DNA from: a virus
Strand: one strand, 5' to 3'
IMG/VR virus record: IMGVR_UViG_3300038531_000172
Span: 1 to 21,180 of that record
Length of the DNA stretch: 21,180 nt
Position 1 is the stretch's first letter, and each line of letters starts with the position of its first letter. Shown in pieces: positions 1-16,854 of this stretch. A model generated the notes under the pieces. That model saw only the letters and a program-made list of their open reading frames with translations, was not told where the DNA came from and made no database searches. Position numbers and translations under genes: made by a program.

Positions 1-17
1 GTTTCCCAGTCACGATC
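1..17 (+). other. Amplification primer sequence at the contig end (artefact)
   Basis: The first 17 bases, gtttcccagtcacgatc, are identical as I recall it to primer B of the sequence-independent single-primer (random PCR) method used for viral metagenomes. It sits exactly at the contig edge, as expected for a read whose primer was not trimmed. Phage sequence probably begins at position 18, or a little further in if random bases of the companion primer mispaired. The tape-measure reading frame runs through it, but residues encoded here should not be trusted. Confidence 0.85.
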
Positions 18-1888
18 ATGGCAGGTATGATACGGTTGATGAAACCCTCATTAAAGGCTTCTCGAAATCCCCTGATGAATGGCTGTATGACTCTTTGATT
101 GAAGTCACTGATAACTCTCTGTAGCTCTAAGAAGTTATCCTTCAGTGCCAGAACAACAGGTATAATAGTTGCAGTTAAGTTAGCGGCGAATAATCCAAAC
201 GCACCTGCAATGGCAGCACTGATACCAAGTATAGGCAGTAGTGCTTTACCTAGTAAAACTATAGCTGTAGTCAATCCTCCGATGGCTACAATCGGGGCCG
301 CTACAATCGCGGTCAGACTTCCCAGTACAGTTAGGAATCCTCCAAGTGATCCAATCAGAGCCGCCACTTTTACAGAGAATTCAATAAAAGGCCTAATGGC
401 TGCTCTGTTAGCCTCGAAAAATTCTTTCAGTACTGCAACCCCACCCCTAAGCTGTGTGAGGAAATCTTTTATTGGGTCTCTGATTTCTTCAAACAATTGA
501 ATGAACAGAGAGTCCACAATACTACGCAGCTTAATGAACTCACCACGAACAGTGTCGAGCTTAATAGCTTCAATGGTTCTGGCTACGCCTTGAGAAGCCT
601 CATTGAGTCCTATAATAGTCTCTAAAGCATTGGAACCTTGATTAAGTATTGCAAGAAATGCTCTTGCAGCTCGTTTCTCAAAAATCTCAAATGTTGCCGC
701 AGTAGAGAGATTAATTCTCTCAAATTCTCGAATGATGTCGAGTAGAGAATTTACTTCAGGATTTACTTGTTCGAATGATGAGCCAAACTGACGAAGAACT
801 TTATCAACTTTTTCAATATCGTCAGTTAGATCAAGAAATACTTGGGACAGACCAGTTCCAGCCCGTGTATTCTTAATACCTGCGTCACCCAGTAAACCAA
901 GTGCCCCAACTACTTGCTCAATACTTTGCCCCAAAGTAGCGGCGATAGAGGAAACCAGAGACAGTGATTGGGCGAGGCCTTCTACAGTGGTGTTACTATT
1001 TGTGGCGGTTTGAGCTAGTACATCAACAACCCTATCTAGGTTTCTTGCTTCAAATCCAAAAGCTCTCAAAGTGTTGGCAGCTACTTCAGCGGCTCGGGCA
1101 AGTTCTAGTCCACCCACTGTAGCAAGTCTAAGAACACTGGGTAGAGCCTCTGTGATCTCTGCGGCAGTGAATCCAGCAAGTGCAAGATTTTTTGCTGCCT
1201 CTGCAACTTGACCTGCTGTGAAAACCGTAGCCTCACCAAGCTCAATAAAGACTTGAGTAAGTTCTTGTATTGATCTCTGAGCCTCTGCACTTCTATCGCT
1301 TAACTCACTAGACACAGCAACTACATCAGCCACTGCTTGCTCAAACTGAGCGCCTATGAGAACTATGGGGGCAAATGCAGCTACAATGCCAGCGGCGAGA
1401 GTGATGAGCTGTCGGCCTGCGTCTCTAAGAACAAACGAGACTTGACGGAGAGATTGTCCGAAAGAGTTTAGAGATTGTGCCCCTGCGGCAAAAGATCTAC
1501 CAAATCGTCTTAACCCCGGAAAAGATTGCAAGACTTGGGCATTGACTGCGCGAACAGCCTTTGCCATGGGTATAAGTTGAGCCCGAGTTGCTTTAACTCT
1601 TTGGGCAAGGATAGTGTTAGCTTTTGCAGCTTGGTTTTTTGCTTTAGTAGCACCCCTGAGAGAGTTCGTTTGCTCTCTCAGAGCTTTAATCATGTTGCGG
1701 GTTGTTTTAAGAGTTCTTTGAGCGTTCCGAACTAAGGCCCTCTGGACAGCATTAAACTGATTGATGTCCTTAGTTGTTTTTTTAACCTCTTTAGCAATAT
1801 CCCTAAAACCTTTTAGGAACTGCTTAAACTCTTTTAGACCCTCGCTGACGACCCTTATCTTGATCCTAGCTGTACCTAGGTCAGGCAT
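1..1888 (-). CDS. Phage tail tape measure protein, TP901 family (partial, C-terminus missing)
   Basis: Starts at ATG 1888 and stays open to the window edge, about 625 codons. Tape measure proteins set tail length by lying inside the tube during assembly and often help DNA cross the envelope. The N-terminus (MPDLGTARIKIRVVSEG) leads into a basic helical stretch. From about residue 150 comes the conserved core seen in TP901-type tape measures: FEQAVADVVAVSSEL, then Ala/Leu-rich segments such as FTAAEITEALPSVLRLA and the GDAGIKNTRAGTGLSQVF segment. A long hydrophobic region follows near residues 490-570 (Gly/Ala/Ile/Leu/Val-rich), typical of the family. Its ATG overlaps the stop of the frameshifted chaperone reading frame by one base (TAATG), so the two are probably translationally coupled. 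The last codons before position 1 lie in primer-derived sequence. Function is confident; total length is unknown. Confidence 0.93.
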   Translation of the reverse strand, partial: MPDLGTARIKIRVVSEGLKEFKQFLKGFRDIAKEVKKTTKDINQFNAVQRALVRNAQRTLKTTRNMIKALREQTNSLRGATKAKNQAAKANTILAQRVKATRAQLIPMAKAVRAVNAQVLQSFPGLRRFGRSFAAGAQSLNSFGQSLRQVSFVLRDAGRQLITLAAGIVAAFAPIVLIGAQFEQAVADVVAVSSELSDRSAEAQRSIQELTQVFIELGEATVFTAGQVAEAAKNLALAGFTAAEITEALPSVLRLATVGGLELARAAEVAANTLRAFGFEARNLDRVVDVLAQTATNSNTTVEGLAQSLSLVSSIAATLGQSIEQVVGALGLLGDAGIKNTRAGTGLSQVFLDLTDDIEKVDKVLRQFGSSFEQVNPEVNSLLDIIREFERINLSTAATFEIFEKRAARAFLAILNQGSNALETIIGLNEASQGVARTIEAIKLDTVRGEFIKLRSIVDSLFIQLFEEIRDPIKDFLTQLRGGVAVLKEFFEANRAAIRPFIEFSVKVAALIGSLGGFLTVLGSLTAIVAAPIVAIGGLTTAIVLLGKALLPILGISAAIAGAFGLFAANLTATIIPVVLALKDNFLELQRVISDFNQRVIQPFIRGFREAFNEGFINRIIPAMIVTGK

Positions 1889-7466: not shown

Positions 7467-7907
7467 CTAACCGTTGTAGGGATTTAGCTGCGGTTGGCTA
7501 AGGAAATGGTCGAGAGAGTTATTGCCATAGACCACTCTTGTTAAAGTCCATGACACACTATCGTCTTTAACGACTCGCCGAACTACAACTGTTTGGGGAA
7601 TGCTTCTTCGCTGAACAGCGTTATTGCTTGCTTCCCATTCTTTGAAATACTCTATCCAGCTGTTGAACTTAGACCGGTTCACGGTTTGGTCGATGTAGAC
7701 AAAGTAAATCTCACCGGCATTGTGAGCTTTAACCAAGGCGGCCTTAATCTGCTCACACGCTGGGCACCATTCCGCACCCACTGTAACTACGATAGGTTTA
7801 TTATCCTCAGCAGACAACTCAATTGCTTCGCTGTAAGTAATTTGAGATTGAACTGGAGAAACAAACAACACTGTTAAAATCAACGGGAGGATTACTCGTC
7901 CGAACAT
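7467..7907 (-). CDS. Secreted thioredoxin-fold protein with WCPAC active site
   Basis: 146 residues from ATG 7907. The N-terminus is a standard signal peptide: basic start (MFGR), hydrophobic core (VILPLILTVLFV), then a likely cut after SPVQSQ near residue 22. The thioredoxin motif follows: VTVGAEWCPACEQIK with redox cysteines C48 and C51. A strand (EIYFVYIDQTVNRSK) and the loop Pro RSIPQTVVV (P104), which in this fold is the cis-proline next to the active site, complete the pattern. It would act outside the cytoplasmic membrane as a thiol reductase, oxidase or isomerase; the CPAC dipeptide does not settle which. Its start overlaps the end of the serine protease gene by 16 bases, so the pair is probably co-translated. 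A secreted thioredoxin in a phage structural operon is unusual. Confidence 0.85.
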   Translation of the reverse strand: MFGRVILPLILTVLFVSPVQSQITYSEAIELSAEDNKPIVVTVGAEWCPACEQIKAALVKAHNAGEIYFVYIDQTVNRSKFNSWIEYFKEWEASNNAVQRRSIPQTVVVRRVVKDDSVSWTLTRVVYGNNSLDHFLSQPQLNPYNG

Positions 7908-9391
7908 GCTAAGGCCCTCATTCTATTTTCATTTGTCAGGGCAAGTACAAAGAACAAGCTATTCCAAATGAAGTGGCGTACAAAAAAGAAAACAACCAAC
8001 CCAGCAACTATACTTAGCCAGACAACGTCTCTTTGAGAAATCCAAGGCGATTGTGCCTCGTCGTCTACTCCGTCGTCTGTGGAATCACCTTCTGGCGTTT
8101 CCTCGTCTGGGCTTTCTTCCTCCGAGTCGGGTTGTTGGGGCTCTTTGTCGGTATCGTCTTTTTTCTCAGGACTTTGGGGAAGCTCTGGTAGTTTAGGTCT
8201 CTCTGGAAATTTATGGGGAGGAGGATTAAAGGGGGGTGGCGCTCTTTCTTGTTCCTCGTCATTAGGTGTCTCAGGTTGTTCAGGTTCCTTGTCTTCCTCT
8301 GGTTGCTGTTCTGGCTGTTGAGGATCAGGAAACCTTCTCGGACCTTTAGGCGGGTCTATGTTGTTAAACAGGTCGTTAGGGTCGCCTTGTTGTCTTGGGG
8401 GTTGTTCAGGTCCGTTAGGATTTCTACGCCTGAACGGTGGGGCCCATTCTTGGGTCTCTACTCCAGAAATAGACTCCATATCTTCTGTGGTAATGGAGTA
8501 TTCCAAAGTGTAAGCTCGTTCCTGATAAAACGGCTCGTCCTCAAGCAAACAGTAGCTAGGATCTATTTGATTTTGTCTGAACAGTAGAGGGGCTCGGAAA
8601 GGCACTTCCGGGTTGATCAGGGGCTTTCCTCTTGCCAAAGACATTCGAACTATTTCGACATCTTCTTTACCGTAAGAAGTCCTACCTTTCATCCAGTCTT
8701 GGACTTCAAGGTAAGTCATTGCTATGCCGTGACCATCCGTCTCTGTTCGTCCGTCTTGACTGTGGTTCTCGCTGCTGGATCTCCAAGCAATAAGACCAAT
8801 TATTTTCTCTCCTCGGTAATCAAAAATAGGACTACCGCTTCGACCTCCGGCTGGCATCAACACAAAGTGAATAACATCGCCGGAACTCTGGTTTCGATCT
8901 ATGGCGTGGCCCTCAAAATTAGTTAGCCAGCTGCCTGCCGCACATCCAAAAGAGTACAGCCTCTCGAAAGACACTTTATCGCCCTCTTCGGCCAGAGGTA
9001 TGACTGTGGGCTCGTAGCCCAGCATGTCACTTTTCCGCACTTGAACTATGGCGATGTCCCGATACCTGTTTTGCTCCATCACTGTGTCGATTACGGTTCC
9101 ATTTACGGAACGGGAGAGGTAGCCTCTCCACCAAAACTGTATCTGAACTACAGCACCCCGTCGATTGCCCACCACATGCCCATTAGTCAACACGTAGTAG
9201 TTGGAGTCATCTTCGCGAAAAACACAGCCAGATCCGACAGCGTTATTCACCATTACTCTTACCGTGGCTTCTCGGCATCGTTCAAGGTTTGGGTCGTGCG
9301 TGAACAAGTCAGTTTGCGCCAGACCCACTTGACAAAAAAACTGTGTTACAGCTAGAACAACGAAAAAAGTGACGAAATTTATCGGTGACAT
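7892..9391 (-). CDS. Secreted, membrane-anchored trypsin-like serine protease
   Basis: 499 residues, ATG 9391. Residues 1-26 are a signal peptide (hydrophobic FVTFFVVLAVTQFF, likely cut after GLAQ). The protease domain (about 35-235) has a full chymotrypsin/HtrA-type triad: His72 in LTNGHVV, Asp112 in RDIAIVQV, Ser185 in GGRSGSPIF, with the substrate-pocket region IIGLIAWRS after it. No PDZ domain is visible. Residues about 310-440 form a low-complexity stalk rich in Pro, Glu, Asp and Gln. A C-terminal helix (VVWLSIVAGLVVFFFVRHFIW) would anchor it in the membrane, leaving a short tail inside. The topology thus displays a protease on a flexible stalk outside the cytoplasmic membrane. It overlaps the thioredoxin gene. 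Substrate is unknown; exclusion of other phages, receptor trimming and virion protein processing are all possible. Confidence 0.87.
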   Translation of the reverse strand: MSPINFVTFFVVLAVTQFFCQVGLAQTDLFTHDPNLERCREATVRVMVNNAVGSGCVFREDDSNYYVLTNGHVVGNRRGAVVQIQFWWRGYLSRSVNGTVIDTVMEQNRYRDIAIVQVRKSDMLGYEPTVIPLAEEGDKVSFERLYSFGCAAGSWLTNFEGHAIDRNQSSGDVIHFVLMPAGGRSGSPIFDYRGEKIIGLIAWRSSSENHSQDGRTETDGHGIAMTYLEVQDWMKGRTSYGKEDVEIVRMSLARGKPLINPEVPFRAPLLFRQNQIDPSYCLLEDEPFYQERAYTLEYSITTEDMESISGVETQEWAPPFRRRNPNGPEQPPRQQGDPNDLFNNIDPPKGPRRFPDPQQPEQQPEEDKEPEQPETPNDEEQERAPPPFNPPPHKFPERPKLPELPQSPEKKDDTDKEPQQPDSEEESPDEETPEGDSTDDGVDDEAQSPWISQRDVVWLSIVAGLVVFFFVRHFIWNSLFFVLALTNENRMRALACSDE

Positions 9392-9401
9392 TTTTTATCT
9401 C

Positions 9402-10481
9402 TTATGTGGATAATGCTCTGAACTCCCAGAGAGCCCTATTCAAAATATTGAAATCGGACAAACTAGTTCTCAGTTCTCTATTTTTGTTAGACAGTACCCC
9501 GTAGGTGCCTAGGGGCAAGATGTTGATATCTGCGTTTTCTTGAAAATTGGTCGAGGTTGTTACGTCACAGGTAGTTCGCAGATAATTATGAAGCTCAGAA
9601 TTCTCGCTTTTACTAATTATATTGATCTTGAACCTGATAGGCAAGTTTTTCGGACCAGAAAAAACAGCTAAATCGCACTTTTCTGGGCAAATGTCGTCAT
9701 ATTTCAGTGCTTTTTGGCTTATCTTTGCGTTCTCGTCCTCTGGGTCAAGAGAAAAGGACGGCTCGATCCCTGCCTTGTTGTAAGCTTTTACCCCCTCCAA
9801 TGAAGGGTATCTAGCTATTACAGCCTCTGGAGAAGTGCTGAAAAACAAGACTTTGCCCGGTATTAGACCAGTTCCAGCGACATGAGCAAACCCAGAATCA
9901 GTACCTATGAAATAACCACATCGCAGTAGAAACTTGGCCTGACCCTCCAAGGTCTCATCAGTATCAGAAAGCTTAAAAATATTAGTGGCGTTAAATCCAA
10001 ACTCATTTCTGGGCCCCAACCAAACCACTTTTTTTCCAGTCGCGGCCAGAGAGAACGCGAGTTTTTCCCACTCCTCGTTGTTCCAATGACGGTTAGGATT
10101 AGAGGCTCCGGGGTGGATTGCTACAGTGTCCTGCCAAACTCTTTCTGCCCCCTCAGGGAAAGACCAAAATCCGGGTTCCTTTACGGGCTTGCCTAACTTT
10201 TCTTCGGCGCATTGATAATAGTCATCTGTCCTAAGTGTTCTAGTCGTCGTCAAAAAACCCGCAAAGTTGATGACCTCGTCAAAAGTTCTGTAATATCCCA
10301 AGTTTCTCATCTTGTGGTCTGAGATGATCTTTTGATACCCCATGAAATTTCTCATTAAGGGCACCTGATGCTCTCTAACCACACCCACCAAGTTGCAGTG
10401 CATATAGTGGGGAGCTGCTGATCCTAAAGCTATAATTGCATCACCGATTCCGCCACTCATTTGAATAGCTACTTTTTTCAT
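9402..10481 (-). CDS. Glycosyltransferase family 9 (heptosyltransferase-like)
   Basis: 359 residues, ATG 10481. The N-terminal domain opens with VAIQMSGGIGDAIIALGSA, equivalent to the Gly-rich G-x-G-D loop of ADP-heptose:LPS heptosyltransferases. The second domain has VAIHPGASNPNRHWNNEEW (about 120-138) and FIGTDSGFAHVAGTG (about 192-206), the D-S-G-x-x-H-x-A nucleotide-sugar motif of this family. Beyond about residue 275 there is a C-terminal extension without recognisable motifs. Family 9 enzymes transfer heptose or related sugars in cell-surface polysaccharide synthesis. In a phage the product may alter the host surface or glycosylate a virion protein. It has no signal peptide, so it acts in the cytoplasm. 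It lies between the connector and protease genes with short gaps; its ribosome site is weak. Confidence 0.85.
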   Translation of the reverse strand: MKKVAIQMSGGIGDAIIALGSAAPHYMHCNLVGVVREHQVPLMRNFMGYQKIISDHKMRNLGYYRTFDEVINFAGFLTTTRTLRTDDYYQCAEEKLGKPVKEPGFWSFPEGAERVWQDTVAIHPGASNPNRHWNNEEWEKLAFSLAATGKKVVWLGPRNEFGFNATNIFKLSDTDETLEGQAKFLLRCGYFIGTDSGFAHVAGTGLIPGKVLFFSTSPEAVIARYPSLEGVKAYNKAGIEPSFSLDPEDENAKISQKALKYDDICPEKCDLAVFSGPKNLPIRFKINIISKSENSELHNYLRTTCDVTTSTNFQENADINILPLGTYGVLSNKNRELRTSLSDFNILNRALWEFRALST

Positions 10482-12311: not shown

Positions 12312-13367
12312 TTAAACGCCTATTCCTACGCCTCGATAAATCCTCTGGAAGATAGCTCCATCGTCTGCTGAACTTGCTGCGCTCCAAGTCCACGTCCCCC
12401 AGAATGTTGCGTTGTCGTTGGATTGGTCGTATTCGTGGGAAATCCAGTCGGCTGAACGTGCTGTTGAATGAAGTTGCACGTCATCCATCCGACCGTCAAC
12501 TGTCCACGACTGATCATCGGTTCCACCGATATTTAGAGTATCCGTTGTGTCACTCATGCTGCCGGTTTGTGCAGTTGGACCACCAGATAAGGAACCATTG
12601 TTGTAAACTCTTATGTTTGACGAATCCCAACTTCCAACGCAGTGCTCCCATGTGCTTGTAGATAATGCTGAACCAGTCTGGTTCACTGGCGATCCGGTAT
12701 CAATGAACAACTGTGGCTGACTAGAACTATTCAATAAAAACTGATATGAGTCTGAAGTTACTCGTCTTTTTCTAATCAGGGAATAAAAACTGGAAGGTGC
12801 GGAGTCGATGTTAAGCCAACAAAAAAGTGTTATCGATCCTGTCACTGACAATGACGCTGAATCCGCACAACTTATGTAATCGTTTGATCCGTCAAAATCA
12901 GTTGCATCACCTACCTTTCCTGTAGCTCCGCCGATCGTCACTCCACCATTAGCCGTTCCATCATTACCATTGGAAGTTCTGTCTGTTTCTCCCCCATCAG
13001 GCCAGTAGCCTTCCCAATTCGGGTCGTAAGCATTGTCGCTTCCATAAGTGTCACTTGCCGCATAGCTCGAATTAGCCGCAACCGGTGGGTAAATCCTCAA
13101 AACCGGTGTTCCGCTGGATGCAAGTGTTCCCGACCACTTAACCCTCAACCAACCCGTTTCTGCTGTGTCGTCGAAATCAATCCAGTCTGTTGCCAGCTCC
13201 GTCTCATCGTCCTTTGCTGCGCGACCCTTTGTACCATCCGTCGTATCAACTTCGGCCCACCACGAACTAGGCATATCGGACAAGTCCACAAGTAAAGTGA
13301 AATCCGTGAGTGCAGACCCCGGATTAGTCACTGTTGCGGTTGCATAACCTGTAGACGGAAGTGCCAC
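12312..13367 (-). CDS. DUF2341 plus LamG-like lectin domain protein (adhesin/fibre candidate)
   Basis: 351 residues starting at GTG 13367, which shares a base with the stop of the upstream gene (TAGTG). Residues about 10-110 match the DUF2341 pattern, with the wall-like ALTDFTLLVDLSDMP, the WIDFDDTAETGWLRVKW segment and VLRIYPPVAANSS. Residues about 150-335 look like a concanavalin A-like/LamG sandwich: GKVGDATDFDGSNDYISC, SITLFCWLNIDSAP, STWEHCVGSWDSSNIRVYNNG, DGRMDDVQLHSTARSADWI. These domains bind carbohydrates in surface proteins. No signal peptide is present, so it is probably assembled on the virion as a decoration or receptor-binding part. The location between capsid and connector genes, rather than after the tape measure, favours a head fibre over a tail fibre. 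Confidence 0.8.
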   Translation of the reverse strand: MALPSTGYATATVTNPGSALTDFTLLVDLSDMPSSWWAEVDTTDGTKGRAAKDDETELATDWIDFDDTAETGWLRVKWSGTLASSGTPVLRIYPPVAANSSYAASDTYGSDNAYDPNWEGYWPDGGETDRTSNGNDGTANGGVTIGGATGKVGDATDFDGSNDYISCADSASLSVTGSITLFCWLNIDSAPSSFYSLIRKRRVTSDSYQFLLNSSSQPQLFIDTGSPVNQTGSALSTSTWEHCVGSWDSSNIRVYNNGSLSGGPTAQTGSMSDTTDTLNIGGTDDQSWTVDGRMDDVQLHSTARSADWISHEYDQSNDNATFWGTWTWSAASSADDGAIFQRIYRGVGIGV

Positions 13368-13657
13368 TAGTAACTAACCCCCAACGCATCAAGCTCCTCC
13401 TCAAGAGCAGTTTGAAGTGCGGTGAATTCTGTTGTGAAGTTCTTCTGTTCCGACTTCAAAAGTTGTTCCTGATGGTCCGTTGAAACAGCAGAATAACTAT
13501 TGGCTTCTGCTATCTCGTCAGCAAACTGCGTGCTGATGTTCGTCAGTTCATTGCGAGCGTTCTTGAGCATCGTTTTTGCCCGGTCCCGCTTTGATTCCGC
13601 GTTAGAGATCATCGTTGCGATGTCGGCCCATGCTCGCTTGACTTTGCTATGTGACAT
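13367..13657 (-). CDS. Small coiled-coil protein, unknown
   Basis: 96 residues from ATG 13657 (MSHSKVKRAWADIATMI), with AGGA seven bases upstream. A second in-frame ATG at 13699 would add 14 residues and would overlap the upstream micro-ORF; the internal start fits the local gene spacing better. The protein is nearly all helix with heptad-like spacing (NAESKRDRAKTMLKNARNELTNI; EFTALQTALEEELDALG). It has no cysteine or membrane segment. It precedes the LamG gene with an overlapping TAGTG junction. It could be a fibre chaperone or an assembly factor for the next gene; no family is recognised. Confidence 0.6.
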   Translation of the reverse strand: MSHSKVKRAWADIATMISNAESKRDRAKTMLKNARNELTNISTQFADEIAEANSYSAVSTDHQEQLLKSEQKNFTTEFTALQTALEEELDALGVSY

Positions 13658-13661
13658 TTTC

Positions 13662-13763
13662 TTATCCTGAAAACTTTGGTTGTCTTTTTTTCTTTTCATG
13701 GTTCATCTTCCACGAATCCCACCCTCGTCCGATCACGATTTTGACCCAATGTGATTCGTTCAT
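13662..13763 (-). CDS. Micro-ORF 2, 33 residues
   Basis: ATG 13763 with a GGGAAGG site five bases upstream, ending in TAA at 13664-13662, four bases before the next gene's ATG. The peptide begins MNESHWVKIVIGRGWDSWKM and ends in a basic tail with KKKRQPK. It shares W-x-x-I-V-I-x-R-x-W-D-S with micro-ORF 1 just upstream. The good ribosome site and tight spacing support translation; the short length keeps confidence modest. Confidence 0.45.
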   Translation of the reverse strand: MNESHWVKIVIGRGWDSWKMNHEKKKRQPKFSG

Positions 13764-13788
13764 AGCAGCCTTCCCTCAATCCATGTTT

Positions 13789-13869
13789 TCAAGTTGGCGA
13801 AGTTGCCGCGTCAGTGAGTGAGTCCCAGTTACGGGATATAACTATGTCTTCCCAATCCTGTTCCGTCAT
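13789..13869 (-). CDS. Micro-ORF 1, 26 residues
   Basis: ATG 13869 follows the stop of the membrane coiled-coil gene by 18 bases and has a strong AGGAAAAGG site about seven bases upstream. The peptide starts MTEQDWEDIVISRNWDSLTD and stops after AATSPT. It shares W-x-x-I-V-I-x-R-x-W-D-S with micro-ORF 2. The sequence past the motif could also be read on in another frame as RQLRQLENMD, so it might be a truncated copy of a slightly longer gene. Confidence 0.4.
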   Translation of the reverse strand: MTEQDWEDIVISRNWDSLTDAATSPT

Positions 13870-13887
13870 TCGTCTACCTTTTCCTAT

Positions 13888-14355
13888 TTAAGCGCTGAAG
13901 GTATCCCCATCAAGAGAACTTATAACTGATCTCAGTCTGGACTTCATTTCTCCGTCCTCTATTCGATCTACTTCAATTTCCAACACCATTCTCTGATGCC
14001 TTACTAGGGATAACACAAGTTTACCCATATAATCATTCTTGATTTCGACTGCTTCCACTGCCGTCTTTACATCACCAATCAACAAACAAAGCTGATCTAC
14101 TAGGGTGTTTAGTTTTTCTTCTTTTTGTTGTATTTTTTCTTTGTGTTCTTTGTCTTGTTTGAGTTGCTCTTCTTTGTAATCTTTGTCATTTTTGTCTTTT
14201 CTCTCTAAATGTGGGGAATGTATTTTCCAAAGATAAAAAACAACTATAACTGCAACTACTAGCAAACCCCCTCCAATTACGCCCCCTTGCATTAAATCAG
14301 ATAAAGGGTTTACAAGGCGGGAAGAGCTTACGACTAAATTCTCTCCAAAATCCAT
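13888..14355 (-). CDS. Membrane-anchored coiled-coil protein, unknown
   Basis: 155 residues, ATG 14355, overlapping the end of the receiver-domain gene by 22 bases. One strong hydrophobic helix at about residues 24-45 (GVIGGGLLVVAVIVVFYLW) is followed by a very charged Lys/Glu stretch (KDKNDKDYKEEQLKQDKEHK) and heptad-like helices to about residue 125. A helical end follows (IEVDRIEDGEMKSRLRSVI). The layout, a short outside segment, one span and a cytoplasmic coiled coil, would suit a spanin-like, holin-accessory or signalling partner. No catalytic motif is visible. Overlap with the receiver gene suggests that the two are made together. Confidence 0.6.
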   Translation of the reverse strand: MDFGENLVVSSSRLVNPLSDLMQGGVIGGGLLVVAVIVVFYLWKIHSPHLERKDKNDKDYKEEQLKQDKEHKEKIQQKEEKLNTLVDQLCLLIGDVKTAVEAVEIKNDYMGKLVLSLVRHQRMVLEIEVDRIEDGEMKSRLRSVISSLDGDTFSA

Positions 14356-14648
14356 TCTTTGAGACCTTTCAGACCTACTGTCTTTTTAAAATAGTCAAGG
14401 TCGGAGCGATCTTCTCCGCTAACAACCAGCACTGGACAGGAGGCCAAGGATTGGGCGATCTTCCAACTGGAATCTCTGAAACTATCGGGCATATTCAAGT
14501 CAAACAGGATGACATCAAAGACTTCTCCGTCCTTTAAGACGGAGTTGAAACTTTTGACATCCTTTACTGTGTAAACTTCCCAGCCACTTAGAGCCCTTCG
14601 TATAGCCTCTGAATCGATAGGGCAATCATCGACTACTAAGACTCTCAC
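14334..14648 (-). CDS. Stand-alone response-regulator receiver (REC) domain
   Basis: 104 residues from GTG 14648. It has the CheY-type acidic pair D7-D8 in MRVLVVDDCPID, the phospho-acceptor D50 in DVILFDLNMPDS, and the conserved Ser/Thr as S77 in VLVVSGED. The usual Lys-Pro near the end is not clear; K94 or K97 in VGLKGLKEW is the candidate lysine. The protein ends soon after the domain, so it has no output domain. It could act as a phospho-sink for, or decoy of, host two-component kinases, or regulate its membrane neighbour encoded by the overlapping next gene. Receiver-only proteins inside a phage structural region are rare as far as I know. The domain call is secure; phosphorylation is not shown. 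Confidence 0.83.
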   Translation of the reverse strand: MRVLVVDDCPIDSEAIRRALSGWEVYTVKDVKSFNSVLKDGEVFDVILFDLNMPDSFRDSSWKIAQSLASCPVLVVSGEDRSDLDYFKKTVGLKGLKEWILERI

Positions 14649-14901: not shown

Positions 14902-15432
14902 TTAATAGAGTCCCAAAATATCGGTTGCCGTTGTACTGGTGGACCAAACTCTTATGGCCCTCACAGGCAGTACTTGGCCAGAGTTTACATTGCTGAAAGT
15001 CACGTCGTCTCCGTACACAGTAGTAACTCTCAGATCTCCACCTGTACCCACGTACAGGCTTCTAGTTGCTCTTGATAGGTTGGCGACATCACTGGGGGTA
15101 ATATCAAATGCGCCTCCAGCTGGATCAACTGGCCAGCCTGTAGCTCGGGTCAAATCTTCCAAACTTAATCCAGAGGAACCCGTAACTAGGTCTGTTAGGG
15201 TGTTGCTTGTTTCCAACACCACTGAACTATCTAATGCGTTTCCTTCTTTGATGATCAAAAACTGACCGCCATTAGAATTTTGCTCGTTAACATGGGCGTC
15301 TGTAAGGTTGACAGTCTTCTTCAGAGAGCCTTGACTATCGTATAAAAACAAGTTTCCGCCCTCGATCATGTACGAGGAGTACAAATTATTGTGAGTGCAG
15401 CAGCTGTCGTAACTGGGATTGGCTGTTGGCAT
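14902..15432 (-). CDS. Head-spike-base-like virion protein
   Basis: 176 residues, ATG 15432, with AAGGA six bases upstream. The C-terminal half (RSLYVGTGGDLRVTTVYGD, VTFSNVNSGQVLPVRAIRVW, STSTTATDILGLY) closely follows a pattern I associate with spike-base proteins of gene transfer agents and related small phage proteins: a strand with Y-V-G-T-x-G-D-L, a V-T-F strand, L-P-V-R, and a final T-x-A-T-D-I-x-x-L-Y. The N-terminal half is longer than in that family and has a CC pair (YDSCCTHNN). It lies just after the tRNAs and is the first gene after the capsid gene, where decoration genes are common. The family link is from memory, so confidence is moderate. Confidence 0.55.
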   Translation of the reverse strand: MPTANPSYDSCCTHNNLYSSYMIEGGNLFLYDSQGSLKKTVNLTDAHVNEQNSNGGQFLIIKEGNALDSSVVLETSNTLTDLVTGSSGLSLEDLTRATGWPVDPAGGAFDITPSDVANLSRATRSLYVGTGGDLRVTTVYGDDVTFSNVNSGQVLPVRAIRVWSTSTTATDILGLY

Positions 15433-15485: not shown

Positions 15486-15559
15486 TCTATTAGGTAGGAT
15501 TCGAACCCACGGCATGACCTCCCCAAAAGGCCCGCTCTACCAGACTGAGCTACTAATAG
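15486..15559 (-). tRNA. tRNA-Pro (anticodon TGG)
   Basis: A complete cloverleaf can be drawn by eye: acceptor CTATTAG paired with CTAATAG (seven pairs), D stem GCTC/GAGC, anticodon stem GGCCT/AGGTC with loop TTTGGGG giving anticodon TGG and G37, and T stem GTGGG/CCTAC with loop TTCGAAT. The discriminator is A. CCA is not encoded; the next bases are CT, so the host would have to add it. It follows the initiator-like tRNA by four bases and is probably cut from the same transcript. It would read CCA and other CCN proline codons. Confidence 0.95.
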
Positions 15560-15563
15560 TTAG

Positions 15564-15638
15564 TGGCAACGGGCGGATTTGAACCGCCGATCTCCGGGGC
15601 ATGAACCCGACGAGATGGCCTGACTTCTCTACGTTGCT
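15564..15638 (-). tRNA. Initiator-type tRNA-fMet (anticodon CAT)
   Basis: The cloverleaf is complete: acceptor AGCAACG against CGTTGCC, D stem GAGA/TCTC, anticodon stem TCGGG/CCCGG with loop TTCATGC, and T stem GGCGG/CCGCC with loop TTCAAAT. Three features mark a bacterial initiator: the 1-72 position is unpaired (A against C), the anticodon stem has three consecutive G-C pairs next to the loop, and the 11-24 pair is A-T (purine-pyrimidine). The first prevents peptidyl-tRNA hydrolase and elongation-factor use and allows formylation. The second directs it to the ribosomal P site. Position 37 is G rather than the usual A. CCA is not encoded. It begins six bases after a promoter -10 box. Confidence 0.93.
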
Positions 15639-15644
15639 ACAGGT

Positions 15645-15673
15645 ATTTTACACCTTTGGTAAGTCAAAGTCAA
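15645..15673 (-). promoter_or_regulatory. Sigma70-type promoter for the tRNA pair
   Basis: Minus-strand TTGACT (15673-15668), a 17-base spacer, then TAAAAT (15650-15645). Both hexamers are one mismatch from consensus (TTGACA, TATAAT) and the spacing is optimal. The initiator tRNA begins six bases after the -10 box, which puts the transcription start at or next to the mature 5' end. The promoter sits directly after the capsid-gene terminator, so it would restart transcription for the tRNAs and the genes beyond. A second TTGACT overlaps the spacer, but its 11-base spacing is too short. Confidence 0.75.
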
Positions 15674-15687
15674 CTTGTCTGCTTACC

Positions 15688-15722
15688 ATAAAAAATAAGG
15701 GCTTAGTGACCCAAGCCCTTAT
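15688..15722 (-). terminator. Intrinsic terminator after the major capsid gene
   Basis: Ten perfect pairs (ATAAGGGCTT at one side, AAGCCCTTAT at the other, 15695-15704 with 15713-15722) enclose an eight-base loop. In the minus-strand direction the stem is followed by a run of T (15694-15690). It begins 25 bases after the capsid stop codon. The opposite direction has no T run, so it acts on minus-strand transcripts. It would limit read-through from the head genes. Confidence 0.85.
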
Positions 15723-15747: not shown

Positions 15748-16854
15748 TTAGTATCCAGCAGTTCCGCCAGCAGCCGGGCTACGGAAGTCCGAGCCGTCGA
15801 TGGCATCTCCACAAGGTACTCGCTCAGTAGTGGTTCCGCAGCTTACGCAAGAGGCGTAAGGCTCTCCACAGAGACTGACGTTCTTAGCAAGAACAATCAT
15901 GTCAGTGTTTTCGATTTGGAAATCAGCATACCAGTGCATGGTGAATTCCCACTTATCGCAACGAGGAATTCGTTCCTTCTCTCGCTTGAACTCACGCATG
16001 ACGTAATAGATCAGGTTTTGCAGTGGAGTCAGTGCAATGACTGTTCCGTCATTAGCTGTTGATCCAATTGGCAAGTTGTCTGGCCATTGTGGAACTTCGA
16101 ACATCGGAATTCCCCATGGACCACGGACAGAGCCATCTTCCAAGAGACGGTCACCCAGATCGGTCTGTCGTTGGGACAGTTCAAACATCCAAGCGTGCAT
16201 TACGTTGGTTGCAACAACCCATCGATACTGAGGACGAGCCACATGGTATCGGGTTGGGATTCGCTTCAACATTTCGTAATACAGTTGACCCGATGGGCCA
16301 GCGCCTGCTGCGTCGATTTGCTGACAAGCCGGAACACAAGCACACATAATTTTCAACCAACCATCGTTGACTCCAAGCAGGTTGTTCTCATCCGTTTGGG
16401 CGTTACCCGTTGGGAGAGTGCTGTCGGATTCGATAGCGGCGAATTCCATGTCATTTGCAATTTGCGTTCGGAATTGGTTGACGAGAATGCTCTCGATTTG
16501 CTCACCAGCGTGATTACAATTAATGAAATCACTTGGAAGATCAAAAGCGGATCGATACTTCTCAAGATCATAACTAACCGTTCGCTCACTGGGGGCGTGA
16601 GTAGATGGGCAGCTAGTCGTTTGGGCACCTTGAGAAACAATTCGTCCCAAGTCCAATTTGGGAGTTTCACCTTTACAGTCTACAGTTCGCACGAGTCGTG
16701 CGGCTTTCAACAGTTTGGAGGTGTCTACCATCAGATCGATGAAACCGTCTGCTCGCTTACGATCAGCCATGCTGTTCGGCAGAGTCGTCTCATCCACTGC
16801 GACGTTGTTACAGTTCTTAGCTTCCAAAAGAAGCTGGTCGATTGTCTTAGACAT
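15748..16854 (-). CDS. Major capsid protein (HK97-fold)
   Basis: 368 residues, ATG 16854, with AAAGGA ten bases upstream. It follows the protease/scaffold gene by 36 bases, the standard place. Features typical of HK97-fold capsid proteins: an N-terminal helical arm (IDQLLLEAKN), the SYDLEKYRSAFDLPSDFI segment leading into the spine helix (IESILVNQFRTQIANDMEFAA), a TGNAQTDENNLLGVNDGW loop, the YYEMLKRIPTRYH helix, RWVVATNVMHAWMF, and the GPWGIPMFEVPQWPDNLP strand. Twelve cysteines are visible, among them CACVPAC and SCVSCGTT, unusually many for a capsid. No delta-domain needed as a scaffold is present; scaffolding is supplied by the upstream gene. A terminator follows the stop. Confidence 0.9.
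   Translation of the reverse strand: MSKTIDQLLLEAKNCNNVAVDETTLPNSMADRKRADGFIDLMVDTSKLLKAARLVRTVDCKGETPKLDLGRIVSQGAQTTSCPSTHAPSERTVSYDLEKYRSAFDLPSDFINCNHAGEQIESILVNQFRTQIANDMEFAAIESDSTLPTGNAQTDENNLLGVNDGWLKIMCACVPACQQIDAAGAGPSGQLYYEMLKRIPTRYHVARPQYRWVVATNVMHAWMFELSQRQTDLGDRLLEDGSVRGPWGIPMFEVPQWPDNLPIGSTANDGTVIALTPLQNLIYYVMREFKREKERIPRCDKWEFTMHWYADFQIENTDMIVLAKNVSLCGEPYASCVSCGTTTERVPCGDAIDGSDFRSPAAGGTAGY

What the first reader, a model, noticed from the sequence alone, without database searches (positions are those of the whole stretch)
15564..15638. Phage-encoded initiator tRNA(fMet) with its own promoter
The CAT tRNA has all three identity elements of bacterial initiators: unpaired 1-72 (A against C), three G-C pairs at the base of the anticodon stem, and an A11-T24 pair. 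Phage tRNAs are mostly elongators. An initiator could raise translation starts on phage mRNAs, replace a host initiator that the cell cuts as an anti-phage response, or favour non-ATG starts (the receiver gene and LamG gene use GTG). G at position 37 is odd, because a purine A is normal next to a CAT anticodon.
Basis: partly seen in the sequence, partly recalled or inferred. Interest (0 to 1): 0.72.

Follow-up and report, generated by a model that had tools for sequence, protein, structure and literature searches.

The report
Phage initiator tRNA, altered anticodon loop
A virus of an unknown bacterium carries its own copy of the tRNA that starts every protein, driven by its own promoter, and the copy is altered exactly where bacterial toxins are known to cut that tRNA, a change almost never seen in bacteria themselves.

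Summary
A CAT tRNA lies at 15564-15638 (minus strand). A held-out covariance model scores it as an initiator (80.9 bits against 53.7 for elongator CAT), and the 1-72 mismatch, three G-C pairs and A11-U24 are all present. It heads a tRNA-fMet/tRNA-Pro pair between capsid and tail genes, behind a strong terminator. A sigma70-like promoter is spaced so that the predicted transcription start is tRNA nucleotide 1 (no 5' leader).

Phage initiators as such are not new: 294 phage records hold initiator-like genes. The anticodon loop, UUCAUGC, is unusual. In 303 cellular initiator genes from four phyla, 37 and 38 are always A; G37 occurs in only 10 places in 84,980 genomes. Viral A37 initiators have a pyrimidine at 38 in 13 of 95 cases (p=4e-9). 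G37 together with Y38 was found only in phage or prophage DNA (seven loci), each time beside head or packaging genes. VapC toxins cut initiator tRNA between A38 and C39.

Best reading: an initiator supplied late in infection, with a loop that escapes initiator-cutting nucleases. Identity is well supported; nuclease escape and leaderless transcription are inferred; the host is unknown.

The parts
15564..15638 (-). initiator tRNA(fMet), anticodon CAT, no encoded CCA
   Evidence: ARAGORN; Rfam; initiator model 80.9 bits against elongator 53.7
15599..15605 (-). anticodon loop UUCAUGC; anticodon 15601-15603, G37 at 15600, C38 at 15599
   Evidence: sequence; cellular comparison; viral comparison
15645..15673 (-). 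sigma70-like promoter TTGACT-17-TAAAAT, at -35 and -12 counted from tRNA nucleotide 1
15695..15722 (-). intrinsic terminator between the capsid gene and the tRNA unit
   Evidence: dG -18.5, none of 200 shuffles as stable
15486..15559 (-). tRNA-Pro(TGG), second gene of the unit, 4 bases behind the initiator
14902..15432 (-). tail fibre-like gene downstream, probably on the same transcript
   Evidence: ORF; phrog_12296; co-transcription inferred
15748..16854 (-). major capsid-type protein gene upstream
   Evidence: phrog_1623; capsid relatives

Best explanation
This is a functional-looking phage initiator tRNA. It is transcribed from its own promoter, probably starting at its first nucleotide, together with a tRNA-Pro and the tail genes behind it, in the late structural region. 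The host adds CCA, charges it with methionine and formylates it (inferred), and it starts phage proteins late in infection. Its anticodon loop keeps CAU and the P-site G-C pairs but changes 37 and 38 (A to G, A to C). These lie just 5' of the bond that initiator-specific anticodon nucleases such as VapC cut (A38|C39), so it can stay intact when the host destroys its own initiator to block the phage. Shown: identity, anatomy, promoter sequence, and the near absence of this loop in cells with its recurrence in unrelated phages. Inferred: expression, formylation, nuclease resistance, and start at nucleotide 1.
For: Initiator model 80.9 against 53.7 bits. Cellular loops: 303 initiator genes from 241 matching genomes in four phyla, the centre genomes' own G37 copies left out, all A37 A38 (rows counted by me). 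G37 in only 10 stretches of 84,980 genomes, five of the nine genomes also holding a normal-loop copy. Viral A37 initiators: 38 is C or U in 13 of 95 (Fisher p 4e-9); 50 distinct viral initiators with 38Y. G37 with Y38 seen only in seven phage or prophage loci, all in head/packaging modules. VapC cut site A38|C39: PMC4105405. Phage tRNAs with loop changes at nuclease sites: PMC10264068. Structural relatives lack the tRNA, so it was probably gained in this lineage. Promoter placement.
Against: The host is unknown, so neither its initiator loop nor any initiator-cutting nuclease was seen. 82 of 95 A37 viral initiators keep A38, so escape cannot be the general reason for phage initiators. Whether G37/C38 blocks any VapC is untested. 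U32/C38 also occurs in elongator Met loops (UUCAUAC), so drift to another workable loop is possible. PMC10264068 reports that phages generally avoid tRNA-fMet where VapC cuts it. Host sigma factors are unknown.
Confidence: 0.5

Rival explanations
1. Plain initiator supply. The phage carries an extra initiator to raise translation starts on its abundant late mRNAs; the loop changes at 32, 37 and 38 are neutral or mildly tolerated drift in a gene under weaker constraint than the host's.
For: Late position and own promoter. Most viral initiators keep A38, and many phage initiators have lost G-C pairs, showing weaker constraint overall. The loop U32/C38 is also used by elongator Met tRNAs.
Against: In the window 13-22 and 46 changed together (A13-U22 with A46), so the body is maintained rather than decaying; of the free positions compared, 38 departs from the cellular state more often (13 of 95) than 44, 45 or 46 (3, 3 and 8 of 95). 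G37 and Y38 go together more often than expected (5 of 6 distinct viral G37 tRNAs against 13 of 95, p 6e-4).
Confidence: 0.33
2. Altered start-codon choice. G37 stabilises weak first-position pairing so that the phage initiator favours GUG or UUG starts.
For: 37 stacks on the first codon pair; two window genes start with GTG.
Against: GTG starts are at an ordinary level; most genes start with ATG. No published support found.
Confidence: 0.05
3. Elongator-like or dual-use methionine tRNA: the elongator-type loop marks a tRNA on its way to reading internal AUG codons.
For: Loop UUCAUGC resembles elongator Met UUCAUAC.
Against: A1xC72, G-C pairs and A11-U24 are all of initiator type; model difference 27 bits. 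By established knowledge the 1-72 mismatch disfavours EF-Tu binding and favours formylation.
Confidence: 0.04
4. A relic without function, left from a host gene.
For: No CCA; loop departs from consensus.
Against: Intact cloverleaf with every tertiary-contact base; well-placed promoter; identical in a second contig; coherent change of 13-22 with 46.
Confidence: 0.08

Closest known systems
Phage-encoded tRNA-fMet genes (e.g. Mycobacterium phage Erdmann, Caulobacter and Aeromonas phages)
   Same: Initiator-type tRNA-Met in a tailed phage genome.
   Different: Most of those looked at keep the CUCAUAA loop and many have lost the three G-C pairs; this one keeps the stem and changes 32, 37 and 38, and has a promoter set at nucleotide 1.
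Phage tRNAs proposed to resist anticodon nucleases (van den Berg et al. 2023, PMC10264068)
   Same: Loop substitutions at or beside a known nuclease cut site.
   Different: That work says phages generally avoid tRNA-fMet where VapC targets it; here an initiator carries the change. Host and nuclease are unknown here.
Initiator-specific VapC toxins of Shigella, Salmonella and Leptospira (PMC4105405)
   Same: Their target bond A38|C39 (mapped for the enteric toxins) is where this tRNA differs.
   Different: They are bacterial toxins; none was seen in the window and cleavage of this tRNA is untested.
Leaderless tRNA genes of Nanoarchaeum equitans (RNase P-free archaeon, PMC10100707)
   Same: Transcription begins at the mature tRNA 5' end.
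   Different: Here only a sequence prediction, in a virus whose host presumably has RNase P; the tRNA-Pro behind it still needs processing.

Membership tests
Bacterial initiator tRNA(fMet) | no Watson-Crick pair at 1-72 | tested here: met
   A1 against C72
Bacterial initiator tRNA(fMet) | three consecutive G-C pairs 29-31/39-41 in the anticodon stem | tested here: met
   GGG/CCC
Bacterial initiator tRNA(fMet) | purine 11 - pyrimidine 24 (A11-U24) | tested here: met
   sequence
Bacterial initiator tRNA(fMet) | scores higher with an initiator model than with an elongator CAT model | tested here: met
   80.9 against 53.7 bits, window held out
Bacterial initiator tRNA(fMet) | A37 A38 in the loop (universal in the cellular genes sampled; not an identity rule) | tested here: not met
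   G37 C38 here; cells 303 of 303 A37 A38
Bacterial initiator tRNA(fMet) | charged, formylated and used at the P site | not testable with these tools
   needs tRNA sequencing or a reporter
Nuclease-evading phage tRNA (PMC10264068) | loop differs from the host tRNA at or beside the nuclease cut site | tested here: inconclusive
   differs from all sampled cells at 37/38, but the actual host is unknown
Nuclease-evading phage tRNA (PMC10264068) | resists the nuclease that cuts the host tRNA | not testable with these tools
   needs an in vitro cleavage assay
Leaderless tRNA gene | promoter positioned so that +1 is tRNA nucleotide 1 | tested here: met
   -35 box at -35..-30 and -10 box at -12..-7 from A1; consensus match only
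Leaderless tRNA gene | 5' end carries a triphosphate in vivo | not testable with these tools
   needs differential RNA-seq or primer extension

The most novel reading that the evidence does not exclude
Phages have repeatedly evolved initiator tRNAs hardened at the 37/38 site against initiator-cutting defence nucleases, and some, including this one, are transcribed without a 5' leader, so that neither RNase P nor an intact host initiator is needed to keep translation starting late in infection.
Probability: 0.25. Interest if true: 0.85.

Novelty: new variant of a known kind. Interest (0 to 1): 0.6.

Why it matters
Why phages carry tRNAs has been debated for more than fifty years. The nuclease-escape idea was built mainly on other tRNAs, and its authors noted that phages tend to avoid the initiator where VapC targets it. 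Finding that viral initiators often differ at exactly the bond VapC cuts, while none of the sampled cellular ones did, makes the idea directly testable with one purified toxin and a few transcripts. It also asks whether initiator tRNA is an under-recognised battlefield between phages and bacteria. Leaderless transcription of a phage tRNA, if confirmed, was not found in any paper searched here.

Tried and rejected
Elongator Met or Ile2 identity: rejected by the model comparison. Host identification: capsid relatives appear at 24-34% identity in 6 of 246 Planctomycetota genomes and at 26-28% in Streptomyces phages, so the host stays open; single-protein scans of IMG/VR with capsid and portal found only the twin contig, and a capsid alignment found only distant relatives. 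GTG-start preference: no evidence. A general link of phage initiators to terminase genes: downstream neighbours of 83 viral initiators are diverse, so the head/packaging location is claimed only for the seven G37+Y38 loci. Literature searches for leaderless tRNAs in bacteria or phages found only Nanoarchaeum and related work. Protein structure prediction was not relevant and not run.

Full report
Observation. The window is a 21,180-base virus record holding late genes of a tailed phage on the minus strand: terminase, portal, capsid, head-tail adaptor and tail genes. Two tRNA genes lie between the capsid gene and a tail fibre-like gene: tRNA-Met(CAT) 15564-15638 and tRNA-Pro(TGG) 15486-15559. 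The Met tRNA has A1xC72, GGG/CCC in the anticodon stem and A11-U24, and no encoded CCA. To test identity I built one covariance model from 30 initiators (29 viral, one cellular) and one from 16 elongator CAT tRNAs, leaving out the window and its twin contig. The window tRNA scores 80.9 and 53.7 bits; cellular initiators about 96 and 60; a cellular elongator Met 48.7 and 73.9 (that elongator and a few other controls were in the training sets). It is an initiator.

Expression unit. A 12-pair terminator follows the capsid gene (dG -18.5; none of 200 shuffles as stable). Then comes TTGACT-17-TAAAAT, six bases, and tRNA nucleotide 1. Counting A1 as +1, the hexamers occupy -35 to -30 and -12 to -7, the textbook positions, so the predicted transcript begins with the tRNA itself. 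I checked whether this recurs. Among 138 distinct viral initiator genes, six have a sigma70-like promoter whose -10 box starts at -13 to -11 (window, L020, L061, L083, L112, L215), against 0.32 expected in shuffled upstream sequence (maximum 4 in 200 shuffles); one of 143 other first-in-cluster tRNAs in the same contigs does. As a share of the 24 promoter-like sites found, six in three offsets has p 4e-4. This is exploratory: the bin was chosen after seeing the window, numbers are small, and I did not verify that all six contigs are free of host DNA.

Anticodon loop. The loop is UUCAUGC. With one pattern that leaves 32, 37 and 38 free, 303 initiator genes from the phyla of four centre genomes (Planctomycetota, Bacillota, Pseudomonadota, Bacteroidota by the centres' record titles; 241 matching genomes; the centres' own G37 copies left out) all read A37 A38, and all but one read CUCAUAA (the row count is mine). 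G37 with the same flanks occurs in 10 stretches of 84,980 genomes; five of the nine genomes involved also hold a CUCAUAA match. A scan for 38Y gives 82 viral stretches, 50 distinct tRNAs, with loops CUCAUAU, UUCAUAC, UUCAUAU, UUCAUUC and others.

Is this just relaxed constraint? Partly perhaps. Position 46 is A in 8 of 95 viral initiators, and 44 and 45 change in 3 each, while cellular rows show A44 G45 G46 throughout apart from one G37 centre copy (L143). In the window A46 goes with an A13-U22 pair in place of C13-G22, the three bases that form one tertiary contact, so the body looks maintained. G37 and Y38 also go together (5 of 6 distinct viral G37 tRNAs have Y38; p 6e-4).

G37 together with Y38. 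This double change was found in seven loci with different tRNA bodies: the window and its twin; L005-L008 with L012; L009; L010/L013; L015; L139; L142. The last two came from the genome collection but lie in phage DNA: L139 just upstream of a major head gene, L142 beside terminase and portal genes of a Mu-like prophage. In all seven the tRNA is in or beside the head/packaging module: after the capsid gene, before the terminase small subunit, before the portal, or between minor head and major head genes. Cellular-looking G37 initiators keep A38 (L136-L138, L140, L141, L143-L145). Neighbours of viral initiators at large are diverse.

How it most likely works. VapC toxins of Shigella and Salmonella cut tRNA-fMet at a single bond, A38|C39, and Leptospira VapC also cuts this tRNA (PMC4105405). 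Van den Berg et al. proposed that phage tRNAs carry loop changes that make them insensitive to host anticodon nucleases, and noted that phages generally avoid tRNA-fMet where VapC targets it (PMC10264068). The window tRNA, and a minority of viral initiators, change the two bases just 5' of that bond while keeping CAU and the three G-C pairs. The reading that explains both what is kept and what is changed is an initiator that stays usable when the host's is cut. The late position and own promoter fit use when late proteins are made. None of expression, charging, formylation or resistance was shown. The main rival, plain initiator supply with drift in the loop, is not excluded, since most viral initiators keep the normal loop and many phage initiators have lost the G-C pairs.

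Evolution. Eight IMG/VR contigs with related capsid genes (24-35% identity) gave no match to the initiator model, though several are fragments. The gene was probably gained in this lineage.

Known and new. Phage initiators are known: 294 phage records have an initiator-like hit. I found no paper in the library on loop changes in phage initiators or on leaderless phage tRNAs. Filed as a new variant of a known kind.

Noticed in passing
L248-L251, L256, L261-L267, L271 (phage records with known hosts): Many phage initiator-like tRNAs have lost one or more of the three G-C pairs (e.g. Caulobacter phage CcrColossus UUUGG/CCAAA, Sinorhizobium phage phiM19 UCUGC/GCAGA, Aeromonas phage phiAS5 UUAGC/GCUAA) while keeping initiator-type D arms and CAU. 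Whether they still initiate is unclear.
   Followed up: partly
L020, L061, L083, L112, L215 and window 15645-15673: Promoter-like sites placed so that transcription would begin at nucleotide 1 of a viral initiator tRNA; six of 138 against 0.32 expected.
   Followed up: partly
window 15486-15559: The partner tRNA-Pro(TGG) has loop UUUGGGG (G38); five of the other six Pro(TGG) tRNAs in the fetched loci have A38, L115 also has G38.
   Followed up: no
L136, L138, L140, L141, L144, L145: A few bacterial genomes (two Bacillota MAGs, a Desulfobacterales, a Myxococcota, Peptoniphilus genitalis) carry a G37 initiator with A38, several of them besides a normal A37 copy.
   Followed up: partly
window 7467-10481 and 12312-14648: Unusual cargo inside the structural region: a thioredoxin-like protein with a signal-like start, a trypsin-like protease with a long proline-rich stretch, a family 9 glycosyltransferase-like protein, a LamG-type lectin-domain protein and a small response-regulator receiver domain.
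   Followed up: no
L261 (Synechococcus phage S-PM2 164824-164895) and L257 (Pseudanabaena phage Pan5 31585-31653): Initiator-like tRNA sequences lie under annotated protein genes ('putative ATPase', 'omega transcriptional repressor'), so these annotations are doubtful.
   Followed up: no
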